A stretch of 33,813 bases of DNA from an uncultured beta proteobacterium (lineage in GTDB: Bacteria; Pseudomonadota; Gammaproteobacteria; Burkholderiales; Burkholderiaceae_C), in the NCBI GenBank assembly GCA_903885585.1, contig CAISJH010000637.1, positions 1-33,813 of the forward strand. The letters are read 5' to 3'. A model generated the notes under the pieces. The model did no database searches. It worked only from the letters and a program-made list of their open reading frames with translations, and had not been told where the DNA came from. The translations under genes were made by a program, and so were the position numbers. Positions within the stretch are counted from its first letter, which is position 1. Every line of letters starts with the position of its first letter. Shown here one piece after another: positions 1-10,500 of the stretch.

Positions 1-519
1 CTTCGCCTTGAGCGTGGCCGCCGCCTGCAGCATCTCGGCATAGGTGGTGGGCACCTTGATGCCGTGCTTGTCGAAGAGGTCCTTGCGGTAGAAGAGGTTC
101 TGGGCGTTCTGGATGAAGGCCACCGCCATGACCTGGCCGTTGACGCGTATCAGCATCCCGTCTTCCAGGCGGTAACGGGTGCGGTACTTGTCCACCAAGT
201 CGGTCATGGGCTGCAGTTGCCCCAGGCTTTGCAGCTTGACGAACTCCCCCATCGAGACCGCAGCGCCACTGAACGGGGACTTGCCCGCCGCAAAAGCACG
301 CTCTGTCTCCTCGCGGGCCTGTGGGGTGATCTTGAAGGCCACCTTCAGCCCCGGGCGGGCACAGGCCTCGATCTGCCGCGCCACGTGCGTCACGGCAGGA
401 AATGAGTTGCCGATGAAGCTGAACTCACCCTGCCCCTTGATATCAGGGCATGAAGCCCAAACCGGCAGCGCGGCGACGGCCAGGATGGCGCAGGCCAGAA
501 GCGATCGCGGGGAGTGCAT
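1..519 (-). CDS. ABC transporter substrate-binding protein, sugar type (3' end outside window)
   Basis: Leftward gene whose first 173 codons are in the window; the rest lies beyond base 1. It starts at ATG 519-517. The N-terminus (MHSPRSLLACAILAVAALP, then VWAS) is a signal peptide for export to the periplasm. The mature part runs through segments typical of extracellular solute-binding family 1 (for example NGQVMAVAFIQNAQNLFYRK and DLFDKHGIKVPTTYAEM), which bind sugars or glycerol-phosphate-like ligands. The gene lies 58 bp downstream of a MalK-type ATPase, so the two are probably parts of one importer. No permease is in the window; the permease genes would be expected beyond base 1. The ligand cannot be read from the sequence. 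The family call is fairly sure, the substrate unknown. Confidence 0.8.
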   Translation of the reverse strand, partial: MHSPRSLLACAILAVAALPVWASCPDIKGQGEFSFIGNSFPAVTHVARQIEACARPGLKVAFKITPQAREETERAFAAGKSPFSGAAVSMGEFVKLQSLGQLQPMTDLVDKYRTRYRLEDGMLIRVNGQVMAVAFIQNAQNLFYRKDLFDKHGIKVPTTYAEMLQAAATLKAK

Positions 520-577: not shown

Positions 578-1639
578 TCAGGCCGACCACTGCAGGCGAG
601 CCTGCGTGGTGGCGTCGAAGAGGTGGCATTGAGCTGGGCGCAAGGTCAGCCCCACTGGTTGACCCACGGTCGTCCGAAACTCCTTGGCCGCTCGAGCAGT
701 GAACAGCCGGTCTCCAATACGGACGGTCACCAAGGTGGCGTCACCCGTGAGTTCGAAGGAGAAGACTTCTTTGACCAAGTCTGCGCCTTCGATCTGGCCC
801 ACAAGGACATCCTCGGCGCGCACGCCCAGTACGGCAGCCGCATGCGTCGCCTGCCCAAAGCCTGTCACGCGCACATCAGGTGAAGTGAACACGCCGTCCT
901 TCAATGAGCCTTCCAGCAGGTTCATCGACGGCGAGCCCACGAAGCCCGCCACAAACAAGTTGGCCGGCTCGTTGTAGATCTGCTCGGGCGTGCCCACCTG
1001 CTGGATGCGGGCCTTGCTCATCACCACCACCCGGTCGGCCAGCGTCATGGCCTCGATCTGGTCGTGCGTCACGTAGATCGTGGTCACACCCAGCTCGTGG
1101 TGCAGATGCTTCAGGTGCACCCGCATGCTCACGCGCAGTTGTGCGTCGAGGTTGGACAGGGGTTCATCCATCAGAAACACTGACGGACGCCTCACGATCG
1201 CCCGAGCCAAGGCAACCCGCTGGCGCTGACCGCCCGAAAGCTCTCTGGGACGGCGCTTGAGGAACTCGGTCAACTCGACCTTTGCCGCAGCCTGGGCTAC
1301 GGCCTGCACTACCTGCTCGGGTGGCATGCCGCGGATCTTTAGCGGAAAGCCGATGTTCTCGGCCACGGTCATGTTGGGATATAGGCCATAGCTCTGGAAG
1401 ACCATCGCCACATCGCGGTCCTTGGGCTCGGCCTCGTTCACACGGCGGCCACCGATGCGGATCTCACCCTCGCTGGGATCCTCCAGCCCCGCCACCATGC
1501 GCATGGTCGTTGTCTTGCCGCACCCGGACGGACCCAACAGCACCAGGAACTCGCCGTCAGCGATGTCCAGCGACATCGGCTCGACGGCGACGGAACCGCC
1601 CCAGCGCTTGCTCACCCCTTCAAGTTCAATCCTGGCCAT
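578..1639 (-). CDS. Sugar-type ABC transporter ATP-binding protein (MalK/UgpC class)
   Basis: Predicted 353-aa ATPase that powers a CUT1-type carbohydrate importer at the inner membrane. Walker A is GPSGCGKT (about residues 36-43). Later come the ABC signature LSGGQRQR, Walker B ending in LMDEP, the D-loop SNLDAQLR and the H-loop THDQIEAMTLADRVVVM. The C-terminal third resembles the TOBE/MalK regulatory domain, as expected for this length. An upstream in-frame start exists at 1687, but the ATG at 1639 gives the standard N-terminus MARIELEGVSKRW and sits 4 bp after the preceding gene, so it is preferred. It is the fourth gene of the leftward SDR-LacI operon. Such ATPases can be shared between several importers, so the partner is inferred from position. 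Confidence 0.92.
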   Translation of the reverse strand: MARIELEGVSKRWGGSVAVEPMSLDIADGEFLVLLGPSGCGKTTTMRMVAGLEDPSEGEIRIGGRRVNEAEPKDRDVAMVFQSYGLYPNMTVAENIGFPLKIRGMPPEQVVQAVAQAAAKVELTEFLKRRPRELSGGQRQRVALARAIVRRPSVFLMDEPLSNLDAQLRVSMRVHLKHLHHELGVTTIYVTHDQIEAMTLADRVVVMSKARIQQVGTPEQIYNEPANLFVAGFVGSPSMNLLEGSLKDGVFTSPDVRVTGFGQATHAAAVLGVRAEDVLVGQIEGADLVKEVFSFELTGDATLVTVRIGDRLFTARAAKEFRTTVGQPVGLTLRPAQCHLFDATTQARLQWSA

Positions 1640-1643
1640 GAAC

Positions 1644-2601
1644 TCAGTCCTGCCGGCCAAGGACTTGCATCCAGATGGCCACGTCATCGATCAGGTGCCA
1701 TTCGCGCACCACGCGACCTGCTTCGAACTCTGCGTGCGTGATGCCCATCACCTCCACGGTGTGTCCGGTGGCGCGGCCGTAGCGGCCGTCGCCTGTGTGC
1801 CGTGTCTGCACGCGCCATCGCATGGCCAAGGGCGTGGCGCGCCCTGGCCTATCGTTCAGTGTCAGGTGCTCGATAACCGGCTCCGCGCCGCGCAGGGCCT
1901 GGGCCATACCGGCCCAGAAGGCAGCCAGCGCCGAGGCGCCTACCGCCCGCTCTCCGCCTGGCAGGGCGGCGATGACATCCGAGGCGTACAGCGACGAGAC
2001 ATCAGAGACTTTGCTGCCCGTCCAACGGGAGAGGAAGACACTGGCGTAGGACTGTGCCAACGCCGAGTGGTCGATCGCTGAACGGTAGCGGCCAGGGGGT
2101 GGTGGCGCCACCGGCTTGGACCAGCCGCCCGCCGTGAGCAGCCAACGCTCGGCCAGCTCGCGTGCGGACAGCCCGATCTGCCGGGCGATCGCGGCCTGGT
2201 CGCGCACCAGCCACTCGTGGACAACGCGGTTGTCCAGGCACACGCAGTCGGCGATGGTGCGCACGTGTACCGCATGCCCACTTGGAGCGCCGAAGACCCC
2301 GGGGCCGGCATGCGTCATCGGGCTGAAGATGCGGTGTGAAGACAGAAAGCCGTCTTCGTCGTCGCCAGAAGCGATGACATCCTCGGCCAGCAGGCGGCGG
2401 TCCGGAAAAGGCTTTGAGGGTGGCCCAGGTGCCATCGATCACTGGCTGCACACCCACGCTGACCGCCGAAGGCGTTTCGACCACGCAGCCCTCGCCGTAA
2501 TAGCGTCGGATGTCGTCGACCCTGCGGCCCTCCCAGATGCGGTCGGTGATGACGCGGATGTAGTGATCCAGGTCCTGGAACTCGGGGTCGAAGCCTTTCA
2601 T
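1644..2601 (-). pseudogene. NTF2/SnoaL-like protein, two domains, broken by a +1 frameshift
   Basis: The leftward reading frame starts at ATG 2601 (MKGFDPEFQDLDHYIRVITD) and runs in phase to a run of four T (coding strand) at 2409-2406. From there homology-like sequence continues in the next frame (PDRRLLAEDVIASGDDEDGF) down to the stop at 1644. Removing one T would give a 318-aa protein. Each half contains an NTF2/SnoaL-type segment, for example VRDQAAIARQIG and AEFEAGRVVREWHLIDDVA, as in ester-cyclase-like proteins. Without the correction the first frame ends near 2002 after 199 aa. It lies 10 bp after lacI and 4 bp before the ATPase. Possible explanations are a real mutation, a sequencing indel in a homopolymer, or slippage at UUU-U. 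No reaction can be assigned. Confidence 0.7.
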
Positions 2602-2611
2602 GTGGTCCTGT

Positions 2612-3718
2612 CTATGTGATGGAGGAAGGAGGTCGTCGCGCCGAGTCGCGGACGATCAACTCACCGGGCACCACGATGTTGCGGGCCACTGGAGAGGAGT
2701 CATCGCGCAGGTAGTCCTGCAGCAGCGTGACTGTGGCCTCGATCATTGGATCGACGGGCTGCTCCACGGTGGTGAGGCTGTAGCTGGCCCAGGCGGCTTG
2801 CGGGACGTTGTCAAAGCCGATGACCGAAACGTCCTCAGGCACTCTCAACTTGAGTTCGTGCCGAAGGGCGTCCATCACGGCGAAGGCCATGTGATCGCTG
2901 GCGACGAAGATGGCGTCAGGGTGCGCCTGGCCACTGCGGAACATGTCGAGGGCTGCTCGCCTGGCTTGCTCGAAGTCATAGTTGCCGGTGGCGCGCGCCC
3001 AGATGTGCAAGCCCGCATCAGCCAGACCCTCGCGAAACCCTTTCTCGCGTTCCAGGTTGGTGGAGGACTCTTCATTGCCCGCAATGAAGGCCACACGCTG
3101 GTGTCCCGCCTGCGCCAGGAATCGGGCCACAGCCCTACCGCCGGCGATGTTGTCGGAGCGCACCGAGCTCACCGCCCCTGCGCTGCCCGTGGCCATGATC
3201 CGGTTGAACAGCACCACCGGGATGCTGGCGTCGGCGCAGTTGCGTGCCAGCGCGGATGACAGCGTGGCGGCGGCCAGCACGATGCCGTCCACGTGGTACT
3301 GCAAGATTTCCGACACCAGGTCGTCGGCATTCGGGTTGTGGTTGACGAACAGCAGCACGTGGTAACCGTCATGCTGCAGGCGTTCGGCCAGCCGTTGAAG
3401 GGCCACCGGGTAGAAGAGGTTCTCCATCGCCGACAGCACCAGGCCAATGATGCGCGAGCGCTTGGTGATCAGGCTGCGTGCGTGCGCGTTGGGCCGGTAG
3501 CCCAGCTTCTGCGCGGCATCGAGCACGCGCTTTCGGGTGGCTTCTGACACGCTCGCGCCGGGCGTGAACGTTCGGCTGACCGCTGATTGGGACACCTGGG
3601 CCAGGCGAGCGACATCGAAGGAGGTGACATTCGGCTTCATGGCCGCCATCATGCCGTCTCTGGCGCGCTGGAGGTCCCAGCGCCCGATCTCGGGCCCCGA
3701 TATGCCGTGCGCCGTCAT
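2612..3718 (-). CDS. LacI-family transcriptional regulator
   Basis: Predicted cytoplasmic DNA-binding repressor or activator of 368 aa. The N-terminal helix-turn-helix is clear (VTSFDVARLAQVSQSAVSRT), followed by the hinge helix region KRVLDAAQKLGYRPNAHARS. A periplasmic-binding-protein-like effector domain follows (SRIIGLVLSAMENLF; DGIVLAAATL; FVASDHMAFAVMDALR). The ATG at 3718 overlaps the stop of the SDR gene in an ATGA arrangement, which suggests translational coupling; ATG codons at 3652 and 3640 would start nearer the HTH and remain possible. The gene sits inside the operon it probably controls. Candidate operators with a central CG, typical of this family, are at 4498-4509, 4689-4700 and 6423-6434. 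The effector is unknown. Confidence 0.92.
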   Translation of the reverse strand: MTAHGISGPEIGRWDLQRARDGMMAAMKPNVTSFDVARLAQVSQSAVSRTFTPGASVSEATRKRVLDAAQKLGYRPNAHARSLITKRSRIIGLVLSAMENLFYPVALQRLAERLQHDGYHVLLFVNHNPNADDLVSEILQYHVDGIVLAAATLSSALARNCADASIPVVLFNRIMATGSAGAVSSVRSDNIAGGRAVARFLAQAGHQRVAFIAGNEESSTNLEREKGFREGLADAGLHIWARATGNYDFEQARRAALDMFRSGQAHPDAIFVASDHMAFAVMDALRHELKLRVPEDVSVIGFDNVPQAAWASYSLTTVEQPVDPMIEATVTLLQDYLRDDSSPVARNIVVPGELIVRDSARRPPSSIT

Positions 3719-4488
3719 GCGGCCGTCCAGCCGCCGTCGACCATCAGCGCCGTACCGGTCACCAGTGCTGACGCATCGCTGGCCAGGAACACGAAGGCGC
3801 CCATCACGTCATCCAGCCGCCCGAGGCGCCCGAGCGCGATGCGGCTGCGCACCTGTTCTGCAAAGGCGGGGTCGGCCAGCATGGGCGCCGTCATGGCGGT
3901 TTCAATGAACGTGGGGCAAAGCGTATTGACGCGAATACCGTGCGGCCCCAGTTCCCAGGCCAGCGCCTTGGTCATGCCCTCCAGCGCGTGTTTGGTCGCG
4001 CAGTAGACCGCTCTTTTGGGCCCGCCCACATGGCCCATCTGTGACGACACGTTGATGATGGAGCCGCCTCGGCCGGCGGCGATCATGCCGCGCGCAGCTT
4101 CGCGGGTGACCACCATGGCGCACCGCACATTGAGATCCAGGACATCCTGCAGATCCTGGTCAGAGGTGTCCGTGAGCCTCGCTGGCCGGTTGGTGCCTGC
4201 GCTGTTGACGACGATGTCCCACGGCCCGTCATCTGCCATGCCGCGGGCCACGGCCTGGGCATCGGTCACATCCAGCGCAAGCACCTGTGCCATGCCCCCG
4301 CGGGAGCGCACCGTGCCAGCTACCGCCTCCAGTTCATCGCGCGATCTGGCTGCGAGCGTCACTTCAGCGCCGGCGCCGGCCAGGGCACAGGCTCCTGCGG
4401 CGCCGATGCCGCGGCCTGCGCCCACGATCAGGGCGCGTCGGCCATCCAGGCGGAAGCTTGGCGTGAAGGGAAGATCTTGAGTGACCAT
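3715..4488 (-). CDS. Short-chain dehydrogenase/reductase (classical SDR)
   Basis: Predicted 257-aa NAD(P)-dependent oxidoreductase, cytoplasmic. The Rossmann glycine motif GAGRGIG is at about residues 23-29, NSAG at 95-98, Asn120, and the catalytic Ser149, Tyr162 and Lys166 (VSSQMG, then VYCATK) have the standard 13- and 4-residue spacing. The C-terminus has the usual SDR end (DASALVTGTALMVDGGW). ATG 4488 is chosen; a GTG nine bases upstream (4497) would add three residues. It is the first gene of the leftward operon, and its stop overlaps the lacI start. A LacI-type box (4498-4509) touches the start region. Many SDRs in such loci oxidise a sugar or secondary alcohol, but the substrate here is not deducible. 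Confidence 0.93.
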   Translation of the reverse strand: MVTQDLPFTPSFRLDGRRALIVGAGRGIGAAGACALAGAGAEVTLAARSRDELEAVAGTVRSRGGMAQVLALDVTDAQAVARGMADDGPWDIVVNSAGTNRPARLTDTSDQDLQDVLDLNVRCAMVVTREAARGMIAAGRGGSIINVSSQMGHVGGPKRAVYCATKHALEGMTKALAWELGPHGIRVNTLCPTFIETAMTAPMLADPAFAEQVRSRIALGRLGRLDDVMGAFVFLASDASALVTGTALMVDGGWTAA

Positions 4489-4497
4489 CTTGTGCAC

Positions 4498-4509
4498 GAA
4501 TACGTATGC
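4498..4509. promoter_or_regulatory. Candidate LacI-type operator, box A
   Basis: GAATACGTATGC differs at two positions from the perfect palindrome GCATACGTATGC and has the central CG common in LacI-family operators. It sits just before the SDR start in the divergent region. Boxes B (4689) and C (6423) each differ from the same palindrome at one position. Binding by the LacI protein encoded at 2612-3718 is inferred. Confidence 0.5.
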
Positions 4510-4522
4510 ACTTTACGGGGTA

Positions 4523-4534
4523 TCGAAGTTTCGA
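4523..4534. promoter_or_regulatory. Dyad TCGAA-GT-TTCGA next to box A
   Basis: Perfect 5-bp arms, 6 bp if the flanking A and T are counted (ATCGAAGTTTCGAT). It begins 13 bp after box A. A nearly identical dyad (TCGAA-T-TTCGA, 6447-6457) begins 12 bp after box C in front of the TonB-dependent receptor gene. The repeated arrangement suggests a shared control module rather than chance. Confidence 0.45.
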
Positions 4535-4688
4535 TCATGCGGGAAATCCCTCGCAGGGGCTAGTTCACTGCCAGTACATGCAGTGCTTCCTTGGTTCACA
4601 TAGCTCGGTTGCTGGACCGGTTTGCCTGTGCGGATGGCGCCACAGCAGGGTAAACACCAGCACACAAACAAGACTCGGCCTCCAGAAT

Positions 4689-4700
4689 GCATGCGTATGC
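4689..4700. promoter_or_regulatory. Candidate LacI-type operator, box B
   Basis: GCATGCGTATGC, one mismatch from GCATACGTATGC; it is the exact reverse complement of box C. It covers the ATG codons at 4691 and 4697 of the hydrolase gene. If the hydrolase really starts at GTG 4754, the box would be about 54 bp upstream of the gene. Confidence 0.5.
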
Positions 4701-5827
4701 GAACAGTTGATCTCAACTGCGTGCAGCCGCTTCTTGCGTGGCGGCATGGGGCTGTGCGAGTGGCTTCAGTCTTGGCCGCTTTGGTGGTCAGCGGCGTGGC
4801 CGTGGCGCAGCCAAGCGCCGGCGGCTCAGCGCCTTTCGCGCCCCCGACCGCCATCGAGCAGCTGCGCGAGGCTTCCGCGTCCGCCTCCAAGCCCGAGTTT
4901 GTTCGGCATCTTGAGGACGGCCCGGGCTTCAAGGCCTCATTGGTGGCCTATCGCGTCGGTGGACGCCGCTTGCATGCCTTGGTCACTACGCCCGAGAGCG
5001 TTACGCCCAGGCAAGGCTTTCCCGTGCTGGTGGCACTCCACGGGTATCACCCCAACCCTCCTCGCTACGGCTACGGGCAAGACGGCCAGGACCGCAGACC
5101 CGGGGACTACTACCGGTCCGTTCCTGGCGCTTATGCCCGGGCTGGGTTCATGGTGGTCATGCCCGACTACAGAGGGCACAGCAATTCCGACGGCGCCGTG
5201 TTCACCCAGCATCCGTTGGCACCCGCCTATTACGCGGAAGACGTTGTGGGCTTGCTGCACGGCCTGTCTGCTTTGCCTGGGGCCGACACCACTCAAGTCT
5301 TTGTATGGGGCCACTCCATGGGCGGCGAGATCGCCCTGCGCGCGGTACTCGCCTGGCCGGAGGTGAAAGCTGCATCGCTGTGGTCCACCTCAGGCGGCGA
5401 CGCCTGGGAACAAGCCCATCACTACGACCGCCTGAACGCGCCCCTGCAGCAAGACTCCACAAGCCGCCCCAAGGCTGGTCTGGACAGGTTGCGCAGCGCT
5501 CTGGCTGCATTTGGACTTCAGGATCGCCAAGAGGCCCGCGAACCTCTGCTGCATCTCCATCTGCTGAAGACGCCTCTGATCCTGCATCACGCCCTGGAAG
5601 ACACCAGCACCGACCCCCGATGGTCCGCGCGGCTGGCCCGCGATTTGTACCTGCGTGGTCTGACCTATGAGTTCCACAGCTACCCGGGCAGCGACCACTT
5701 CTTCCAGGAGCCCCAGCGCACTGACGCTGTTGCCCGGGACATCGCATTCTTCAAGGCCCATCAGGGCACCAGGAGCAATGCGGTGCCCAAGATCACTGCA
5801 CCCACCAGCACACAGGACACCAAATGA
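4691..5827 (+). CDS. Exported alpha/beta hydrolase (prolyl-oligopeptidase/S9-like)
   Basis: Predicted secreted or periplasmic serine hydrolase of about 378 aa. A hydrophobic segment ending in an Ala-X-Ala site (VASVLAALVVSGVAVAQ) is a signal peptide. The oxyanion region FPVLVALHGYHP, the nucleophile elbow GHSMGG (Ser209), an Asp in ALEDTSTD (Asp304) and His in YPGSDHFF (His336) form a complete alpha/beta-hydrolase triad. The start is uncertain: ATG 4691, ATG 4697, or GTG 4754, which would give the neat signal peptide MRVASVLAALVVSGVAVAQ and leave box B upstream. Its stop overlaps the next gene (ATGA). The substrate is probably an ester or peptide-like compound brought in by the nearby TonB-dependent receptor; this is inference. 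Confidence 0.85.
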   Translation: MRMRTVDLNCVQPLLAWRHGAVRVASVLAALVVSGVAVAQPSAGGSAPFAPPTAIEQLREASASASKPEFVRHLEDGPGFKASLVAYRVGGRRLHALVTTPESVTPRQGFPVLVALHGYHPNPPRYGYGQDGQDRRPGDYYRSVPGAYARAGFMVVMPDYRGHSNSDGAVFTQHPLAPAYYAEDVVGLLHGLSALPGADTTQVFVWGHSMGGEIALRAVLAWPEVKAASLWSTSGGDAWEQAHHYDRLNAPLQQDSTSRPKAGLDRLRSALAAFGLQDRQEAREPLLHLHLLKTPLILHHALEDTSTDPRWSARLARDLYLRGLTYEFHSYPGSDHFFQEPQRTDAVARDIAFFKAHQGTRSNAVPKITAPTSTQDTK

Positions 5828-6381
5828 AAGGCTCACGCCCAGAACAGGCGCGGTTGACGCGTGACAACGACCTGAGAAAGACGGAGGAAACCCGCCGCGT
5901 CGTGGAAGGGATGGTCGACGGGTTGAACGACCATGTCATCGACGGCATTGGTGATTTCTTCCACCAGGACTTTCGCTGGATGGGGAACGCCGGATGCGGC
6001 ACCAAGCTCGGGCTGAAGTCCTTTCAGGACCACTGGCAGCGCCCCTTCCAGGCCGCCTTCTCCGACAAGGTGTGCACCGATGAGGCGCGACTGGCCGAGG
6101 GCGAATGGATGGCAGCCTTCGGTGCGCAGATAGCCACCCACAGCGGTGAGTTCATGGGCATCGCCCCCACGGGCAAGCGGGTGGAGATCCGCTACATGGA
6201 CTTCTGGCGCGTCAAGGACGGCAAGATCGTCGACAACTGGGTGATGGTGGACTTTCCGCACGTGATGCGCCAACTCGGCGTGGACCCGTTCAACGGCCAT
6301 GGGTGGGAAGCGTTTGACACGGGTGAGCGTGAAGCTCCCCGGCCGACTGCACCGGCAGCCGCCGACCCCACCCCGCGCTGA
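5824..6381 (+). CDS. SnoaL/NTF2-like (ester cyclase-type) protein
   Basis: Predicted 185-aa protein of the NTF2-like fold. Typical features are DHVIDGIGDFFHQDFRWMG early, then a central GKRVEIRYMDFWRVKDGKIV and the end VDNWVMVDFPHVMRQLGVD, as in SnoaL-like ester cyclases, which bind small ligands in a cone-shaped pocket. It starts in an ATGA overlap with the hydrolase stop, so the two are probably made together. No signal peptide is evident although the hydrolase has one. A longer, frameshifted relative lies in the leftward operon (1644-2601), so the locus carries two proteins of this fold. These folds include isomerases, hydratases and cyclases; the reaction is not determinable here. Confidence 0.85.
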   Translation: MKGSRPEQARLTRDNDLRKTEETRRVVEGMVDGLNDHVIDGIGDFFHQDFRWMGNAGCGTKLGLKSFQDHWQRPFQAAFSDKVCTDEARLAEGEWMAAFGAQIATHSGEFMGIAPTGKRVEIRYMDFWRVKDGKIVDNWVMVDFPHVMRQLGVDPFNGHGWEAFDTGEREAPRPTAPAAADPTPR

Positions 6382-6422
6382 CCTTGCGCGCAATGGCCAT
6401 GGACACAGAAGCCCCCGCATTT

Positions 6423-6434
6423 GCATACGCATGC
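6423..6434. promoter_or_regulatory. Candidate LacI-type operator, box C
   Basis: GCATACGCATGC, one mismatch from the palindrome GCATACGTATGC and the exact reverse complement of box B. It lies 117 bp upstream of the TonB-dependent receptor start and 12 bp before a TCGAA-T-TTCGA dyad, repeating the layout seen at 4498-4534. Confidence 0.5.
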
Positions 6435-6446
6435 GCCTGTCCTCCT

Positions 6447-6457
6447 TCGAATTTCGA
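6447..6457. promoter_or_regulatory. Dyad TCGAA-T-TTCGA next to box C
   Basis: Perfect 5-bp arms around one base. It matches the dyad at 4523-4534 apart from a one-base shorter centre, and has nearly the same distance from the LacI-type box. It may be a second factor's site or an extended part of one operator. Confidence 0.4.
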
Positions 6458-6550: not shown

Positions 6551-8968
6551 ATGACATCCCGCACCTTTCGCCCTTCCAGCGCAGTCGCCAGGCGCATGGC
6601 CACTCGACCCACAGTGTTGGCCAGCCTCATTGGCGTGGCCTTTGCTGCACCGCAGGCCTGGGCACAAGCCTCGACCCAGGAGAACGATCCTCGCTTCGGC
6701 GCCCAGACCATCACGGTGACCGCGACCAAGCGCGCACAGACCGTCCAGGAGGTGTCAGCCTCAGTCACGGCCATCGACGAGAAGTCGATGGAGATCGCCG
6801 GCATCGTGGATCCCACCCGACTGGGCCTGGTGGTGCCGGGCCTGCGCGTGGGCTATTCCGGCGACGAGGCCCGGTTTGCGATCCGCGGCGCGCGCACTAA
6901 CAACGTGGGAGTGACGGCTCAGCAAGTAGTCGGCGTGTTTAACGATGGCGCCTACGCCGCCACCACAGGCCAGACCTTGGCCAGCTACCTCGATGTGCAG
7001 CGCATCGAAGTGTTGCGTGGCCCGCAGGGCACGCTGTACGGCCGCAACACCTTTGCGGGGGCCATCAACATCATCAGCAATCAACCCGAGTTTGGCGACA
7101 CCTACGGCAACGTCAACGCCCTGCTGGGTGACTACCGTCGCGTACGTGCGCAGTCGGTGCTGAACCTGCCCCTGAGCAATACCTTTGCCGTGCGCGTTGC
7201 ACTGATGGGTGATCGCCATGATGGCTATATCCGTAACTCCTATCTTGAAGGCACCAGCGACGACTTGCGCAACGAAAACGTGCAGGTAGGCCGCGTGACC
7301 ATGCGTTGGAAACCAACCAAGGACTTCGACGCCAGCCTGCGCATCACCTCGTACGACCGCGATACCAACAGCGATGCCATCTGGGGCTACACCCAGATCG
7401 GCTGCTACCGCAACAATGGCGACGCCTCAACGGCTACCAAGCTCTCGGCCAATGCGGTCTACGTCAAGGGCCACTGCTGGCGGCCCGGGCCGGACTCAGC
7501 GGGCTCCACGGGGACCAGTGGAGCCTCCACGAAGGATGATGCTGGACCCTGGGACATCAGCCGGGATGGGCCGTCACGCGGTATGGCCAAGGGTACGAGC
7601 GTGAATTTGCAGGCGCAGTACAACATGGGCTTCGGAACGCTTTCCGTTCAGGGGGCGCACGACCGCTACAAGTCGCTCCAGTACTTTGACCCGGACTACA
7701 GCAACGGCTTCCACTATGGCCAGTACGGCCAGAGTTCGCTGACGAACTTCTTCGCAGGTTACGACAACGACCAGACCAGCCAATCGCTGGAAGTGCGGCT
7801 GGCCTCGAACGGCAACACCCGGCTGAAGTGGTTGCTGGGCGCCTACCAGTTCCAGCAGCGCGCCAACTGGAACTTCGGTTACCTCGACAACGGCCAGTAC
7901 TTACGCTACGACAAGAAGGGCGACACCTTCGATTCGGACTCCCAGGCCGTCTTTGCCAACGCGTCGTACAACCTCACCGAGAAGTTGCGCGTGCTAGGCG
8001 GCATCCGCAGCAACAAGGACTCGCAGAAGCTGACTGGGGGCGCCAATGGGGGCGGTGGCAGCAAGCCGCTGTGGCGGCTGGGTGCCGAGATGGACGTGGC
8101 CAAGGACATGATGCTCTACGCCACGGCCTCCACGGGCTACCGAGTGGGTGGCGTAAACGGCGCCACCTTGGTGGCCGCAGGGGCGCCTGCCGTCTACGGC
8201 CCCGAAACCGTGACCGCCCTGGAGCTCGGCTTCAAGAGCCAGTTCATGAAGCGCACACTGACGCTGAACGGCTCGCTCTACAGCAACCGGTACCGCAACA
8301 TGCACGCGCAGTCCTTCGTGACCGCCTGCATCGACCCGAGCAAACCCGCCACCTGCATCGCATCGGAGTTCACCAGCAATGGTGGCGAGATCGATGCCAA
8401 GGGTGCCGAGCTGGAGTTCAACTGGATCCCCGGCAAGAGTTTCTTCCTCAACGGCTCCCTTGCTTTCCTGGACGCCAAGTTCGGCAACTACCTGGTCAGC
8501 CAACTGTCCGGCCTGGGCAATCTTGGCGGGCGCCAGGAGGTGACGAAGACGAAGGAACAGATCGTGGCTGCCGGTGGTGTCCCTGCGTTGCAGCTGCGAG
8601 GTTGGCAGCCCGCCCTGTCACCGAAGTTCACCGCCTCCATGCAGACCGGCTACGTGATGCGTCTGGGTGACGGCAGCCTGCTGACACCCATGGCTCAGGT
8701 GTCGTACTCCGACAAGTACTGGAGCTTCGATTACAACGTGCCGGGCTCGGAGCAGAAGGCCTACGCCAAGACCGACTTGCGCCTGCGCTGGAAGAACGAG
8801 AAGAAGGGCATCACGGTCGAGGGCTACGTCGAGAACGTGACCAACCAGGCCGTCCTGGTGCGCTCGGTGGTCTTCAAGCCTGATGAGGCCAATGTGCCCA
8901 CCGCCTCCATCCAGGCCAACTACGGTGACCCGCGCACCTGGGGCATCAAGGTGGGGATGGAGTTCTGA
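6551..8968 (+). CDS. TonB-dependent outer-membrane receptor
   Basis: Predicted 805-aa gated outer-membrane transporter. ATG 6551 follows a GGAGA ribosome site and gives a signal peptide (…VLASLIGVAFAAPQAWAQ). A TonB-box-like stretch follows (QTITVTATKRAQTVQEVSA), then the plug domain (DPTRLGLVVPGLRV; RFAIRGARTNNVG; IEVLRGPQGTLYGRNTFAGA) and a long beta-barrel ending in aromatic Phe (GIKVGMEF). The open frame extends further upstream, but without a signal peptide at its start. The barrel has a TonB-receptor C-terminal pattern (LRLRWKNEKKGITVEGYVEN). Control by the LacI regulator is inferred from box C. The sequence does not look like a typical siderophore or vitamin B12 receptor by eye, and the neighbouring hydrolase and sugar-type ABC genes suggest an organic carbon source. 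The ligand is unknown. Confidence 0.93.
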   Translation: MTSRTFRPSSAVARRMATRPTVLASLIGVAFAAPQAWAQASTQENDPRFGAQTITVTATKRAQTVQEVSASVTAIDEKSMEIAGIVDPTRLGLVVPGLRVGYSGDEARFAIRGARTNNVGVTAQQVVGVFNDGAYAATTGQTLASYLDVQRIEVLRGPQGTLYGRNTFAGAINIISNQPEFGDTYGNVNALLGDYRRVRAQSVLNLPLSNTFAVRVALMGDRHDGYIRNSYLEGTSDDLRNENVQVGRVTMRWKPTKDFDASLRITSYDRDTNSDAIWGYTQIGCYRNNGDASTATKLSANAVYVKGHCWRPGPDSAGSTGTSGASTKDDAGPWDISRDGPSRGMAKGTSVNLQAQYNMGFGTLSVQGAHDRYKSLQYFDPDYSNGFHYGQYGQSSLTNFFAGYDNDQTSQSLEVRLASNGNTRLKWLLGAYQFQQRANWNFGYLDNGQYLRYDKKGDTFDSDSQAVFANASYNLTEKLRVLGGIRSNKDSQKLTGGANGGGGSKPLWRLGAEMDVAKDMMLYATASTGYRVGGVNGATLVAAGAPAVYGPETVTALELGFKSQFMKRTLTLNGSLYSNRYRNMHAQSFVTACIDPSKPATCIASEFTSNGGEIDAKGAELEFNWIPGKSFFLNGSLAFLDAKFGNYLVSQLSGLGNLGGRQEVTKTKEQIVAAGGVPALQLRGWQPALSPKFTASMQTGYVMRLGDGSLLTPMAQVSYSDKYWSFDYNVPGSEQKAYAKTDLRLRWKNEKKGITVEGYVENVTNQAVLVRSVVFKPDEANVPTASIQANYGDPRTWGIKVGMEF

Positions 8969-9057: not shown

Positions 9058-10344
9058 TCAGGAGCCGGATGAAGGTCCCAAAGGAAAGCCTGCTGGAGCT
9101 GCTACGAAGTACATGTCAATCAGTCCCTTGCCTTTCACTTCGATCTTTCCGCGGTACTCGCACGGGAAATCTTCGCGGATCAGGTGACAGGTGTAGGCGG
9201 ACACGTTCACCCGTCCCGCCTCGCCACTGGCCTCCATGCGGGCCGCGATGTTGACGGTATCTCCCCAGACATCGAAGGCGTACTTGCGTTTGCCCACCAC
9301 CCCAGATACGACGGGACCCGAGTGGATGCCAACGCGTAGGCCCCACTTGAAAGCTGAGGACGCGTTGCGTGCTTGCATGAACTGCAGCATCTCCCGCGCA
9401 GCGCGTACGCAACGCTGTGCATGGTCGCTGCAACTCTGCGGAACGCCTGCTGCAGCCATGTAGGCATCACCGATGGTCTTGATCTTTTCCACGCCGCACT
9501 CGTCGCAGATGTCGTCGAAGGCTGCAAAGATTTCGTTGAGCTGGCTGACTACCATGTCTGCGGGCATGGCCGCAGAGGCTTGGGTGAAACCGCTGAAGTC
9601 GGTGAACAAGATCGACACGGCGTCGTGTCGCACGGGCTTGGTCGAGCCGGTGCTCGCCAGTTCCTGAGCCACGTCGCGTGGCAGCATGTTCTCCAGAAGG
9701 GCCTGCGTCTCCTGCGCCCGCGCCTCCTTTTCCTCGACCAGTTGCGTGGCCAGAAAGCGGCTCTGGCGACCATAGAAATACACGGCCACGAGGCCGACGG
9801 CGGTGGTCCCCACCATGTTCGAAAGACTCAGAGTCGTCAGCATCCAGGCGGGCGGGAGCTGGTCCACTGGGGCGTAGGGAGCGGCCCATACTGAAGCCCC
9901 ATACACGCCTATGCCTGCCACCAGGGTGAACACGGCAGCACGCACACCGTCAATGGCGTAGACCACCAAAGGAAAGAACAGCACGTAGATGAGCGAGCCC
10001 TGAGCGTGCTGAAGACCACCCAATGAGTGATTGATCAGGAACATCAGGACAAAGTGCAAAGCTGTGTAGACGCGCCATAGCGGAACAGGATCAGCCACTC
10101 TGGGCATGACGGCCGCCAGCGCCGCGGCGACCACGGCACCGAACAGGTCGAGCGCAGCGGTGCGAAACGCGCCGCCCGCTGCGAAGAAGGCCGCATGAGC
10201 CAGAAAAAAGAAGAAGGCCAGCGCCAGAAACGCAAGCACGATCATCTTTTTCAGGCGCGCGTCGGCCGAGGCACCAGGATGGACAAGCCTGGCCTCCAGG
10301 GCATCGAGCCACGTCGGCTTGGGTGGCGATGGCGTACGAATCAT
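9058..10344 (-). CDS. Membrane-anchored class III adenylate cyclase
   Basis: Predicted 428-aa enzyme making cyclic AMP from ATP. The N-terminal half has about six hydrophobic segments (for example MIVLAFLALAFFFFLAHAAF), then a linker (LVEEKEARAQETQALLENML) and a class III cyclase domain. Visible catalytic residues are the metal Asp249 in FTDFSGFT and Asp293 in KTIGDAYMA. Lys289 and Asp358 (FDVWGD) are at the positions that select adenine over guanine, and Asn365 and Arg369 (NIAARM) are the transition-state residues. ATG 10344 is chosen; a GTG at 10371 would add nine residues. It lies 156 bp downstream of the lyase gene on the same strand, so it may have its own promoter. The signal sensed by the membrane part is unknown. 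Confidence 0.88.
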   Translation of the reverse strand: MIRTPSPPKPTWLDALEARLVHPGASADARLKKMIVLAFLALAFFFFLAHAAFFAAGGAFRTAALDLFGAVVAAALAAVMPRVADPVPLWRVYTALHFVLMFLINHSLGGLQHAQGSLIYVLFFPLVVYAIDGVRAAVFTLVAGIGVYGASVWAAPYAPVDQLPPAWMLTTLSLSNMVGTTAVGLVAVYFYGRQSRFLATQLVEEKEARAQETQALLENMLPRDVAQELASTGSTKPVRHDAVSILFTDFSGFTQASAAMPADMVVSQLNEIFAAFDDICDECGVEKIKTIGDAYMAAAGVPQSCSDHAQRCVRAAREMLQFMQARNASSAFKWGLRVGIHSGPVVSGVVGKRKYAFDVWGDTVNIAARMEASGEAGRVNVSAYTCHLIREDFPCEYRGKIEVKGKGLIDMYFVAAPAGFPLGPSSGS

Positions 10345-10500
10345 GGGGAATCCGCATGCAACTGCAGACACCCCTGTTCGGTCACTGCGCGCATAAAAGA
10401 GCCCGATACATCGCGCTCGGCTGGAACAACACTGACAGGCCCAACAAAGGCTGCGCGGATCTCAAGCCACGCATTGTGCGATGGGACGTCGTGTAATCCA

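What the first reader, a model, noticed from the sequence alone, without database searches (positions are those of the whole stretch)
4498..6457. Composite LacI-type control module repeated in front of two operons, with a third box
Three 12-bp boxes near the perfect palindrome GCATACGTATGC occur at 4498 (2 mismatches), 4689 (1) and 6423 (1). All have the central CG favoured by LacI-family operators and all lie within 3 kb of a lacI gene. At 4498 and 6423 a second dyad (TCGAA-GT-TTCGA; TCGAA-T-TTCGA) begins 13 and 12 bp after the box. I saw no fourth box elsewhere in the window. This links the SDR/lacI/ABC operon, the hydrolase pair and the TonB-dependent receptor into one regulon. The second dyad has no named owner and may be a second factor.
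Basis: partly seen in the sequence, partly recalled or inferred. Interest (0 to 1): 0.75.

Follow-up and report, generated by a model that had tools for sequence, protein, structure and literature searches.

The report
LacI-type repressor and its operator regulon

Summary
The three boxes are real. Best reading: a 14-bp LacI-family operator, TGCATACGTATGCA. Of 80 loci encoding relatives of the window's LacI, 66 hold it with at most 2 mismatches, mostly near a hisD-like/SDR/lacI operon. In 13 distinct loci a hybrid variant, TGCATACGCTTGCA, lies beside a TonB-dependent receptor homologue. Recognition helix and operator vary together: VSQSAVSR orthologs go with TGCATACGTATGCA, most VSTSAVSR and the one VSSSAVSR ortholog with TGCAAGCGCTTGCA-type sites. 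The regulon claim is well supported in silico and extends to a hisD-like gene on contig C54. The TCGAA dyad is real and rare (2 of 4 genome copies sit beside boxes), but no box tested outside the window has it and the closest relative differs there. Another second element, about CTMGGTGTTTTCCCTAG, recurs at preferred distances from the box; the window has its best copy before the hydrolase (4644-4662) and a weak one before the SDR (4537-4555). Best mechanism: autoregulated catabolic repressor plus an unnamed second factor, perhaps an activator. Substrate unknown. An ordinary kind of regulon; I found no paper describing it in the searches made.

The parts
4497..4510 (-). Operator 1 (TGCATACGTATTCG on the minus strand), 5 bases upstream of the SDR start codon (ATG 4491-4489) in the 14-bp reading
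   Evidence: kept in G029
4688..4701 (+). Operator 2 (TGCATGCGTATGCG); contains the probable hydrolase start codon (ATG 4691)
   Evidence: kept in G029
6422..6435 (+). Operator 3 (TGCATACGCATGCG), about 115 bp upstream of the TonB-dependent receptor start
   Evidence: hybrid boxes beside TonB-dependent receptor homologues in 13 distinct relatives
4523..4534 (.). TCGAA-GT-TTCGA dyad; rare in the genome, not seen beside boxes in relatives; one arm and spacing differ in G029
6447..6457 (.). TCGAA-T-TTCGA dyad; rare in the genome, not seen beside boxes in relatives
4644..4662 (-). Recurrent second element (TGCTGGTGTTTACCCTGCT), -44 from operator 2; best hit of the window with the full model (13.3 bits), but below threshold (4.0 against 4.7) with a model trained only on Cupriavidus/Achromobacter/Bordetella-like loci
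   Evidence: kept in G029
4537..4555 (-). Second element, weak copy (TGCGAGGGATTTCCCGCAT, 6.4 bits), -45 from operator 1 in the SDR direction; its core is identical in G029; a 7.5-bit hit inside the SDR coding region outscores it
2612..3700 (-). lacI; probable start (MKPNVTS) at about 3640; recognition helix VSQSAVSR
   Evidence: Pfam LacI + Peripla_BP_3; alignment
3715..4491 (-). SDR oxidoreductase, first gene of the SDR-lacI-SnoaL-malK-SBP operon
1644..2601 (-). SnoaL-like gene, split here over two reading frames
578..1639 (-). ABC transporter ATPase, MalK type
1..519 (-). ABC solute-binding protein, cut by the window edge
4691..5827 (+). alpha/beta hydrolase with an apparent signal peptide (read by eye), divergent from the SDR
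5824..6381 (+). SnoaL-like protein; relatives 78-85% identical sit between hisD and SDR in Rhodoferax-type operons
6551..8968 (+). TonB-dependent receptor

Best explanation
The three boxes are operators (consensus TGCATACGTATGCA) of the LacI-family repressor encoded at 2612-3700. Bound to them, the repressor shuts its own operon (SDR, lacI, SnoaL, ABC importer), the divergent hydrolase/SnoaL pair and the TonB-dependent receptor, together with a hisD-like dehydrogenase on another contig. An inducer, presumably the imported compound or a breakdown product, releases it. Operator 1 sits just before the SDR start codon and operator 2 over the hydrolase start codon, so bound repressor would block RNA polymerase there or soon after it starts; paired boxes (191 bp apart here, 138 bp on C54, 26 bp in Cupriavidus) suggest looping or cooperative binding. 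A second recurrent palindrome, about CTMGGTGTTTTCCCTAG, at -20, -35 or -45 from many boxes, may bind a separate activator near the -35 region. Shown by computation: boxes, conservation, helix-operator co-variation, preferred spacing of the second element. Inferred: binding, repression, inducer, activator role. The confidence below is for the LacI-operator part; I give the activator role about 0.5.
For: Box with <=2 mismatches in 66 of 80 loci; 25 palindromes with permuted half-sites reach 0-10 loci, except one with 31 that I did not explain. Flanks have diverged: 101 of 124 box flanks remained after dropping short ones and those >=60% identical to a kept one. Of 10 relatives' genomes, 7 have one perfect 12-mer and 3 none; by coordinates 5 of the 7 are at the lacI locus, 1 lies 580 bp outside the held stretch, 1 (Roseateles toxinivorans) is elsewhere. 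The box is present in lacI loci where no hisD is found in the held stretch (L036-L038, L045, L050-L052, L057). Helix and operator: over 87 loci at <=1 mismatch, sites anywhere in the locus counted, Q-helix (77): 60 Q-type only, 2 both, 15 neither, 0 T-type only; other or unread helix (10): 0 Q-type, 7 T-type, 3 neither. The hisD-like gene has two boxes on C54 and in G029. Second element: 62 of 82 box clusters; held out, 29 of 54 and 24 of 28 clusters above the random 95% threshold, best offsets clustered.
Against: No binding or expression data. 14 of 80 loci lack the box: 3 contigs start inside the operon (L040, L071, L085); in L056, L064 and L066 a box lies beyond the held stretch; L103, L107 and L110 carry the T-type box; L108 has neither; L065, L070, L106 and L109 remain unexplained. 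One-mismatch 12-mers are not much commoner than the reversed control in ten genomes (62 against 40). The helix-operator switch may be a single evolutionary event. The receptor promoter of the window lacks the second element; only 3 of 18 T-type boxes have a strong one; its motif seed came from looking at flanks of both halves, so the held-out tests are not fully blind; 206 of 2000 random segments also reach 6 bits. Promoters and start sites are not mapped.
Confidence: 0.9

Rival explanations
1. One reading: box plus TCGAA dyad is one control module, the dyad being the site of a second factor shared by the SDR/hydrolase and receptor promoters.
For: Only 4 TCGAA-N1/2-TTCGA sites in 5.48 Mb and 2 of them start 12-13 bp after a box. 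In G029 a differently spaced dyad (GAAGC-G-GCTTC) occupies the same place.
Against: No such dyad beside the boxes tested outside the window. In G029 one arm is changed and the spacing differs, while the neighbouring GGGAAATCCC core is untouched; G029 is the only near relative and its receptor promoter is missing. The dyad lies on opposite sides of the box relative to transcription at the two promoters.
Confidence: 0.15
2. The boxes are sites of some other regulator, and the lacI gene is only a neighbour.
For: Co-localisation alone would not exclude it; in Roseateles toxinivorans the one perfect 12-mer is away from lacI.
Against: The box is found beside lacI where no hisD is held, and the operator differs with the residue at one position of this LacI's recognition helix. 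A hisD paralog 49% identical (L126) has no box in its locus, and none was found in the 4-kb loci of the 14 LacI paralogs L010-L023 (33-40% identical).
Confidence: 0.05
3. The box before the hydrolase (4689) is a coincidence of coding sequence around the start codon; only boxes 1 and 3 act.
For: It overlaps the ATG at 4691, where codons constrain the sequence.
Against: It is kept exactly in G029 while the codons after it differ, and a second-element copy lies at the usual -44; C54 and G029 have a similar two-box layout before hisD.
Confidence: 0.1

Closest known systems
LacI-family local repressors of catabolic operons (LacI, PurR, the regulogs of Ravcheev et al. 2014, PMC4052901)
   Same: HTH plus periplasmic-binding-like domain, CG-centred palindrome, operator in its own operon, transporter and dehydrogenase genes as targets, paired sites
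   Different: Operator half-site TGCATACG; the 26-bp double box in Cupriavidus is not among the spacing peaks given in the passage read (13, 22, 32 bp); the hisD-like/SDR/SnoaL/TonB-receptor gene set is not named in the passages read, and 'histidinol', 'TonB' and 'Comamonadaceae' occur 0 times in that main text
HpsN, DHPS 3-dehydrogenase of Cupriavidus pinatubonensis (PMC11382572)
   Same: Best PDB match of the regulon's hisD-like protein (386.7 bits, against 260.3 for the best histidinol dehydrogenase)
   Different: The defining G-R-Y-A/S-H motif reads G-K-Y-P-L here; the position of His126 holds Leu. Its cluster hpsRNOUPsuyAB differs
CrbR ACTU motif (PMC5715377), considered for the second element
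   Same: Imperfect inverted repeat upstream of the promoter (-52 to -36)
   Different: Printed examples such as TACTACCATCGTCGAAT do not resemble CTMGGTGTTTTCCCTAG

Membership tests
LacI-family repressor | N-terminal LacI HTH domain | tested here: met
   Pfam PF00356, 48.1 bits, cut-off 27
LacI-family repressor | Periplasmic-binding-like effector domain | tested here: met
   PF13377 116.4 bits, PF00532 87.4 bits
LacI-family operator | Even palindrome with central CG, conserved with the regulator | tested here: met
LacI-family repressor | Binds the operator and is released by an effector | not testable with these tools
   needs purified protein
HpsN DHPS dehydrogenase (hisD-like regulon member) | G-R-Y-A/S-H motif with sulfonate-binding His | tested here: not met
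   GKYPL in the Achromobacter protein aligned; the C54 sequence reads GGKYPLL when translated by eye; motif from the paper
Histidinol dehydrogenase (hisD-like regulon member) | TIGR00069 above cut-off | tested here: inconclusive
   passes TIGR00069 (cut-off 243.8): C54 protein 470.7 or 444.1 bits depending on the stretch submitted, Achromobacter protein 447.9; but scores far below the cut-off of NF010343 and closer to HpsN than to HisD structures

The most novel reading that the evidence does not exclude
A betaproteobacterial catabolic regulon with dual-input promoters: a LacI-family repressor whose recognition-helix residue and operator have switched together (Gln with TGCATACG, Thr/Ser with TGCAAGCG), paired with an unnamed factor that reads a recurrent palindrome CTMGGTGTTTTCCCTAG at preferred distances from the operator, controlling an uncharacterised third kind of HisD-like dehydrogenase (GKYPL) and its outer-membrane uptake.
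Probability: 0.6. Interest if true: 0.55.

Novelty: new member of a known kind. Interest (0 to 1): 0.45.

Why it matters
It gives a concrete operator, a testable regulon and a natural one-residue specificity switch for a regulator found in many Burkholderiales. It links an uncharacterised HisD-like dehydrogenase pathway to its transporter and outer-membrane receptor, which narrows the search for the substrate. The recurrent second element points to a second, unnamed regulator of the same promoters.

Tried and rejected
DHPS degradation as the pathway: not claimed, because the hisD-like protein lacks the HpsN motif. CrbR/ACTU as owner of the second element: the printed examples do not match. Finding the owner from genome-wide copies: the pattern at 2 mismatches gave counts near the reversed control in three genomes (G000 0 forward/1 reverse against 2/1; G063 0/2 against 1/0; G061 3/3 against 2/2), and the 10 neighbouring ORFs submitted were of mixed function, so no owner is named. 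The C9 and C210 boxes: inside an ORF, and no CG centre. Second element in T-type loci: above 15 bits at 3 of 18 boxes (L149, L150, L152, at offsets that only partly fit), so not general there; random segments exceed 9 bits in 71 of 1500. An unrestricted motif search first converged on hisD start codons and was set aside. The first counts of second-element flanks (74 of 101; 32 of 65; 30 of 36) count paired boxes that share one element twice; the cluster counts replace them. Paper searches: 59 and 69 returned no paper; one returned three papers holding the 12-mer, unrelated by title, not opened; one returned three, of which one was read in passages. RegPrecise itself and paper supplements could not be searched.

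Full report
Observation. Loose matching is uninformative (12 sites at <=3 mismatches, 10.85 expected), but three sites at <=1 mismatch in 33.8 kb compare with a mean of 0.05 in 60 Markov simulations (maximum 2). In the whole assembly (G000, 5.48 Mb, 862 contigs) seven places match at <=1 mismatch, five for the reversed control. Besides the three here, two lie 138 bp apart before a hisD-like gene on contig C54, with the near-gene variant TGCATACGTATTCG that also stands before the SDR; the other two look like chance.

Setting. The LacI protein lies in an operon SDR-lacI-SnoaL-malK-SBP on the minus strand. An alpha/beta hydrolase and a second SnoaL-like gene diverge from it, followed by a TonB-dependent receptor. 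Box 1 lies just before the SDR start codon; box 2 contains the hydrolase start codon; box 3 lies about 115 bp before the receptor. These start codons are my reading.

Conservation. A scan of named bacterial genomes with an alignment of six LacI orthologs returned the best 80 of 496 loci with a relative (capped list). With the 14-bp reading TGCATACGTATGCA, 66 of 80 loci hold a copy with <=2 mismatches and a CG centre, 41 copies being perfect; 25 permuted palindromes gave no perfect copy and reached 0-10 loci, except one with 31 that I did not explain. Mapping window proteins onto the loci shows a common order box-hisD-(SnoaL)-SDR-lacI-SnoaL-malK-SBP, or hisD-SDR-lacI with TctC-like genes in many Achromobacter, Bordetella and Cupriavidus loci. 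In 13 distinct loci (L025-L028, L032, L033, L035, L038, L052, L055, L057, L058, L063) a hybrid box TGCATACGCTTGCA lies beside a TonB-dependent receptor homologue (27-38% identical to the window's). The 14 loci without a box: 3 contigs start inside the operon (L040, L071, L085); in L056, L064 and L066 a box lies beyond the held stretch (for L064 and L066 judged by coordinates); L103, L107 and L110 carry the other operator type; L108 neither; L065, L070, L106 and L109 are unexplained. In ten whole genomes the perfect 12-mer occurs once in seven and not in three; by coordinates five are at the lacI locus, one 580 bp outside the held stretch, one (Roseateles toxinivorans) elsewhere. One-mismatch-or-better copies total 62 against 40 for the control pattern. 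G029, whose LacI is 96% identical, keeps both boxes of the divergent region and, on another contig, two boxes before a 97% identical hisD-like protein, so the C54 gene is unlikely to be a contaminant, although its promoter region is also nearly identical to that of L049, a Rhodoferax MAG.

Helix and operator vary together. LacI orthologs whose recognition helix reads VSQSAVSR carry TGCATACGTATGCA. The VSTSAVSR orthologs L103, L107 and L110 lack it and have TGCAAGCGCTTGCA-type sites before hisD or SDR instead; L108 has neither. A search in relatives of L107's genome (150 genomes, 14 with a match) and 13 fetched stretches gave five new orthologs with another or unread helix (L149 Ser, L150 Thr, L151 unread, L152 Ile, L153 Thr), all with T-type sites: four at <=1 mismatch, L152 at 2. 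The one new Q ortholog (L156) has before hisD only a site whose CG centre is changed, TGCATACCTATGCA. Over 87 loci at <=1 mismatch, counting sites anywhere in the locus: Q-helix (77) 60 Q-type only, 2 both, 15 neither, 0 T-type only; the other ten: 7 T-type only (5 Thr, 1 Ser, 1 unread) and 3 neither (Thr L108, Arg L106, Ile L152), 0 Q-type. The window itself and L031 count as neither there, because their best copies have 2 mismatches in the 14-mer. The switch may be one evolutionary event, so these counts are not independent. The position corresponds to Tyr17 of E. coli LacI and Thr15 of PurR (recalled, not from a call), known specificity positions.

The TCGAA dyad. It is real, and its closeness to two boxes is unlikely by chance: 4 copies in the genome, 2 of them here; the composite only here. 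But of 124 boxes in 82 loci none outside the window has such a dyad within 90 bp. In the only near relative one arm and the spacing differ, although another dyad lies in the same place. It may be a species-level feature; I give 0.15 for a real shared second site.

The recurrent second element. Six-mers GGGAAA, GGGTAA and CTAGGG are enriched around boxes. A motif model of about ACTMGGTGTTTTCCCTAG exceeds 6 bits in 62 of 82 clusters of non-redundant boxes, against 206 of 2000 random 194-bp segments. Split by locus number (roughly by kinship) and tested on the other part, 29 of 54 and 24 of 28 clusters exceed the random 95% threshold; by single box 32 of 65 and 30 of 36, with best offsets mostly at -44 to -46, at -35 to -37 (read from either strand) and at -19/-20. 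The seed came from looking at flanks of both parts, so the test is not fully blind. In Cupriavidus and some others the element, a first box and a second box 26 bp on occur together (element at -20 and -46); most Achromobacter and Bordetella loci have a single box at -20, many Rhodoferax-type loci one at about -45. In the window the full model's best hit in 33.8 kb is 4644-4662, -44 from box 2 (13.3 bits), and a weak copy lies at -45 from box 1 (6.4 bits, below a 7.5-bit hit in the SDR coding region). With the model trained on the Cupriavidus/Achromobacter/Bordetella part, the weak copy passes (5.5 against 4.7) and the 4644 copy does not (4.0). Both cores are kept in G029 while the sequence around them drifts. 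The receptor promoter has none. With a likely -10 just before the box (my reading), the element would centre near -41, where class II activators bind; this is inference. Its owner is unknown.

Function. The regulon joins an outer-membrane receptor, an ABC importer, an SDR, SnoaL-like proteins and, elsewhere in the genome, a HisD-like dehydrogenase. That dehydrogenase is closer to HpsN than to HisD structures but lacks the HpsN sulfonate motif, so a DHPS pathway is not claimed. One Cupriavidus locus examined (L081) adds 3-hydroxyacyl-CoA dehydrogenase-like and LeuC-like genes, hinting at oxidation of a polyol or hydroxy acid. The inducer and substrate remain open.

Literature. PMC4052901 and PMC5343134 were seen as passages around search terms, PMC11382572 as passages and one section, PMC5715377 as passages; the other papers only in search listings. 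None of these passages describes this regulator. Searches returned no paper, 37 and 39 none that I recognised as describing it; RegPrecise entries could not be checked.

Noticed in passing
1644-2601 (-): The SnoaL-like gene is split over two reading frames here, while the start coordinates of the two parts fall in one frame in the relatives I looked at (e.g. L031, L032); possibly an assembly error in this MAG.
   Followed up: partly
L024:4160-4256 (G029:C197): In G029 the sequence passes from the start of the second SnoaL gene straight to the last codons of the TonB-dependent receptor (read by eye): deletion or assembly collapse.
   Followed up: no
L030 / L001, last ~75 bases (G000:C54): The end of C54 repeats a stretch of the hisD-like gene, which looks like an assembly artefact.
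   Followed up: no
L068 7844, L084 7855, L098 7865; L045 9330/9451 and 17582/17705: Boxes also before hisD in Variovorax, Polaromonas and another Comamonadaceae MAG; the Herbaspirillum locus L045 has two pairs 121 and 123 bp apart with no hisD hit in the locus.
   Followed up: partly
hisD-like proteins of the regulon (L030:11288-12538, L082:7936-9237): They carry G-K-Y-P-L where HpsN has G-R-Y-A/S-H and HisD has G-S-A-P-L: possibly a third HisD subfamily with an unknown substrate.
   Followed up: partly
9058-10371 (-): Class III adenylate/guanylate cyclase gene beside the receptor (PF00211); no box at <=1 mismatch near it.
   Followed up: no
permuted control palindrome ACTATGCGCATAGT in L031-L110: This control matched 31 of 80 loci at 2 mismatches, far more than the other 24 controls; cause not looked into.
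   Followed up: no
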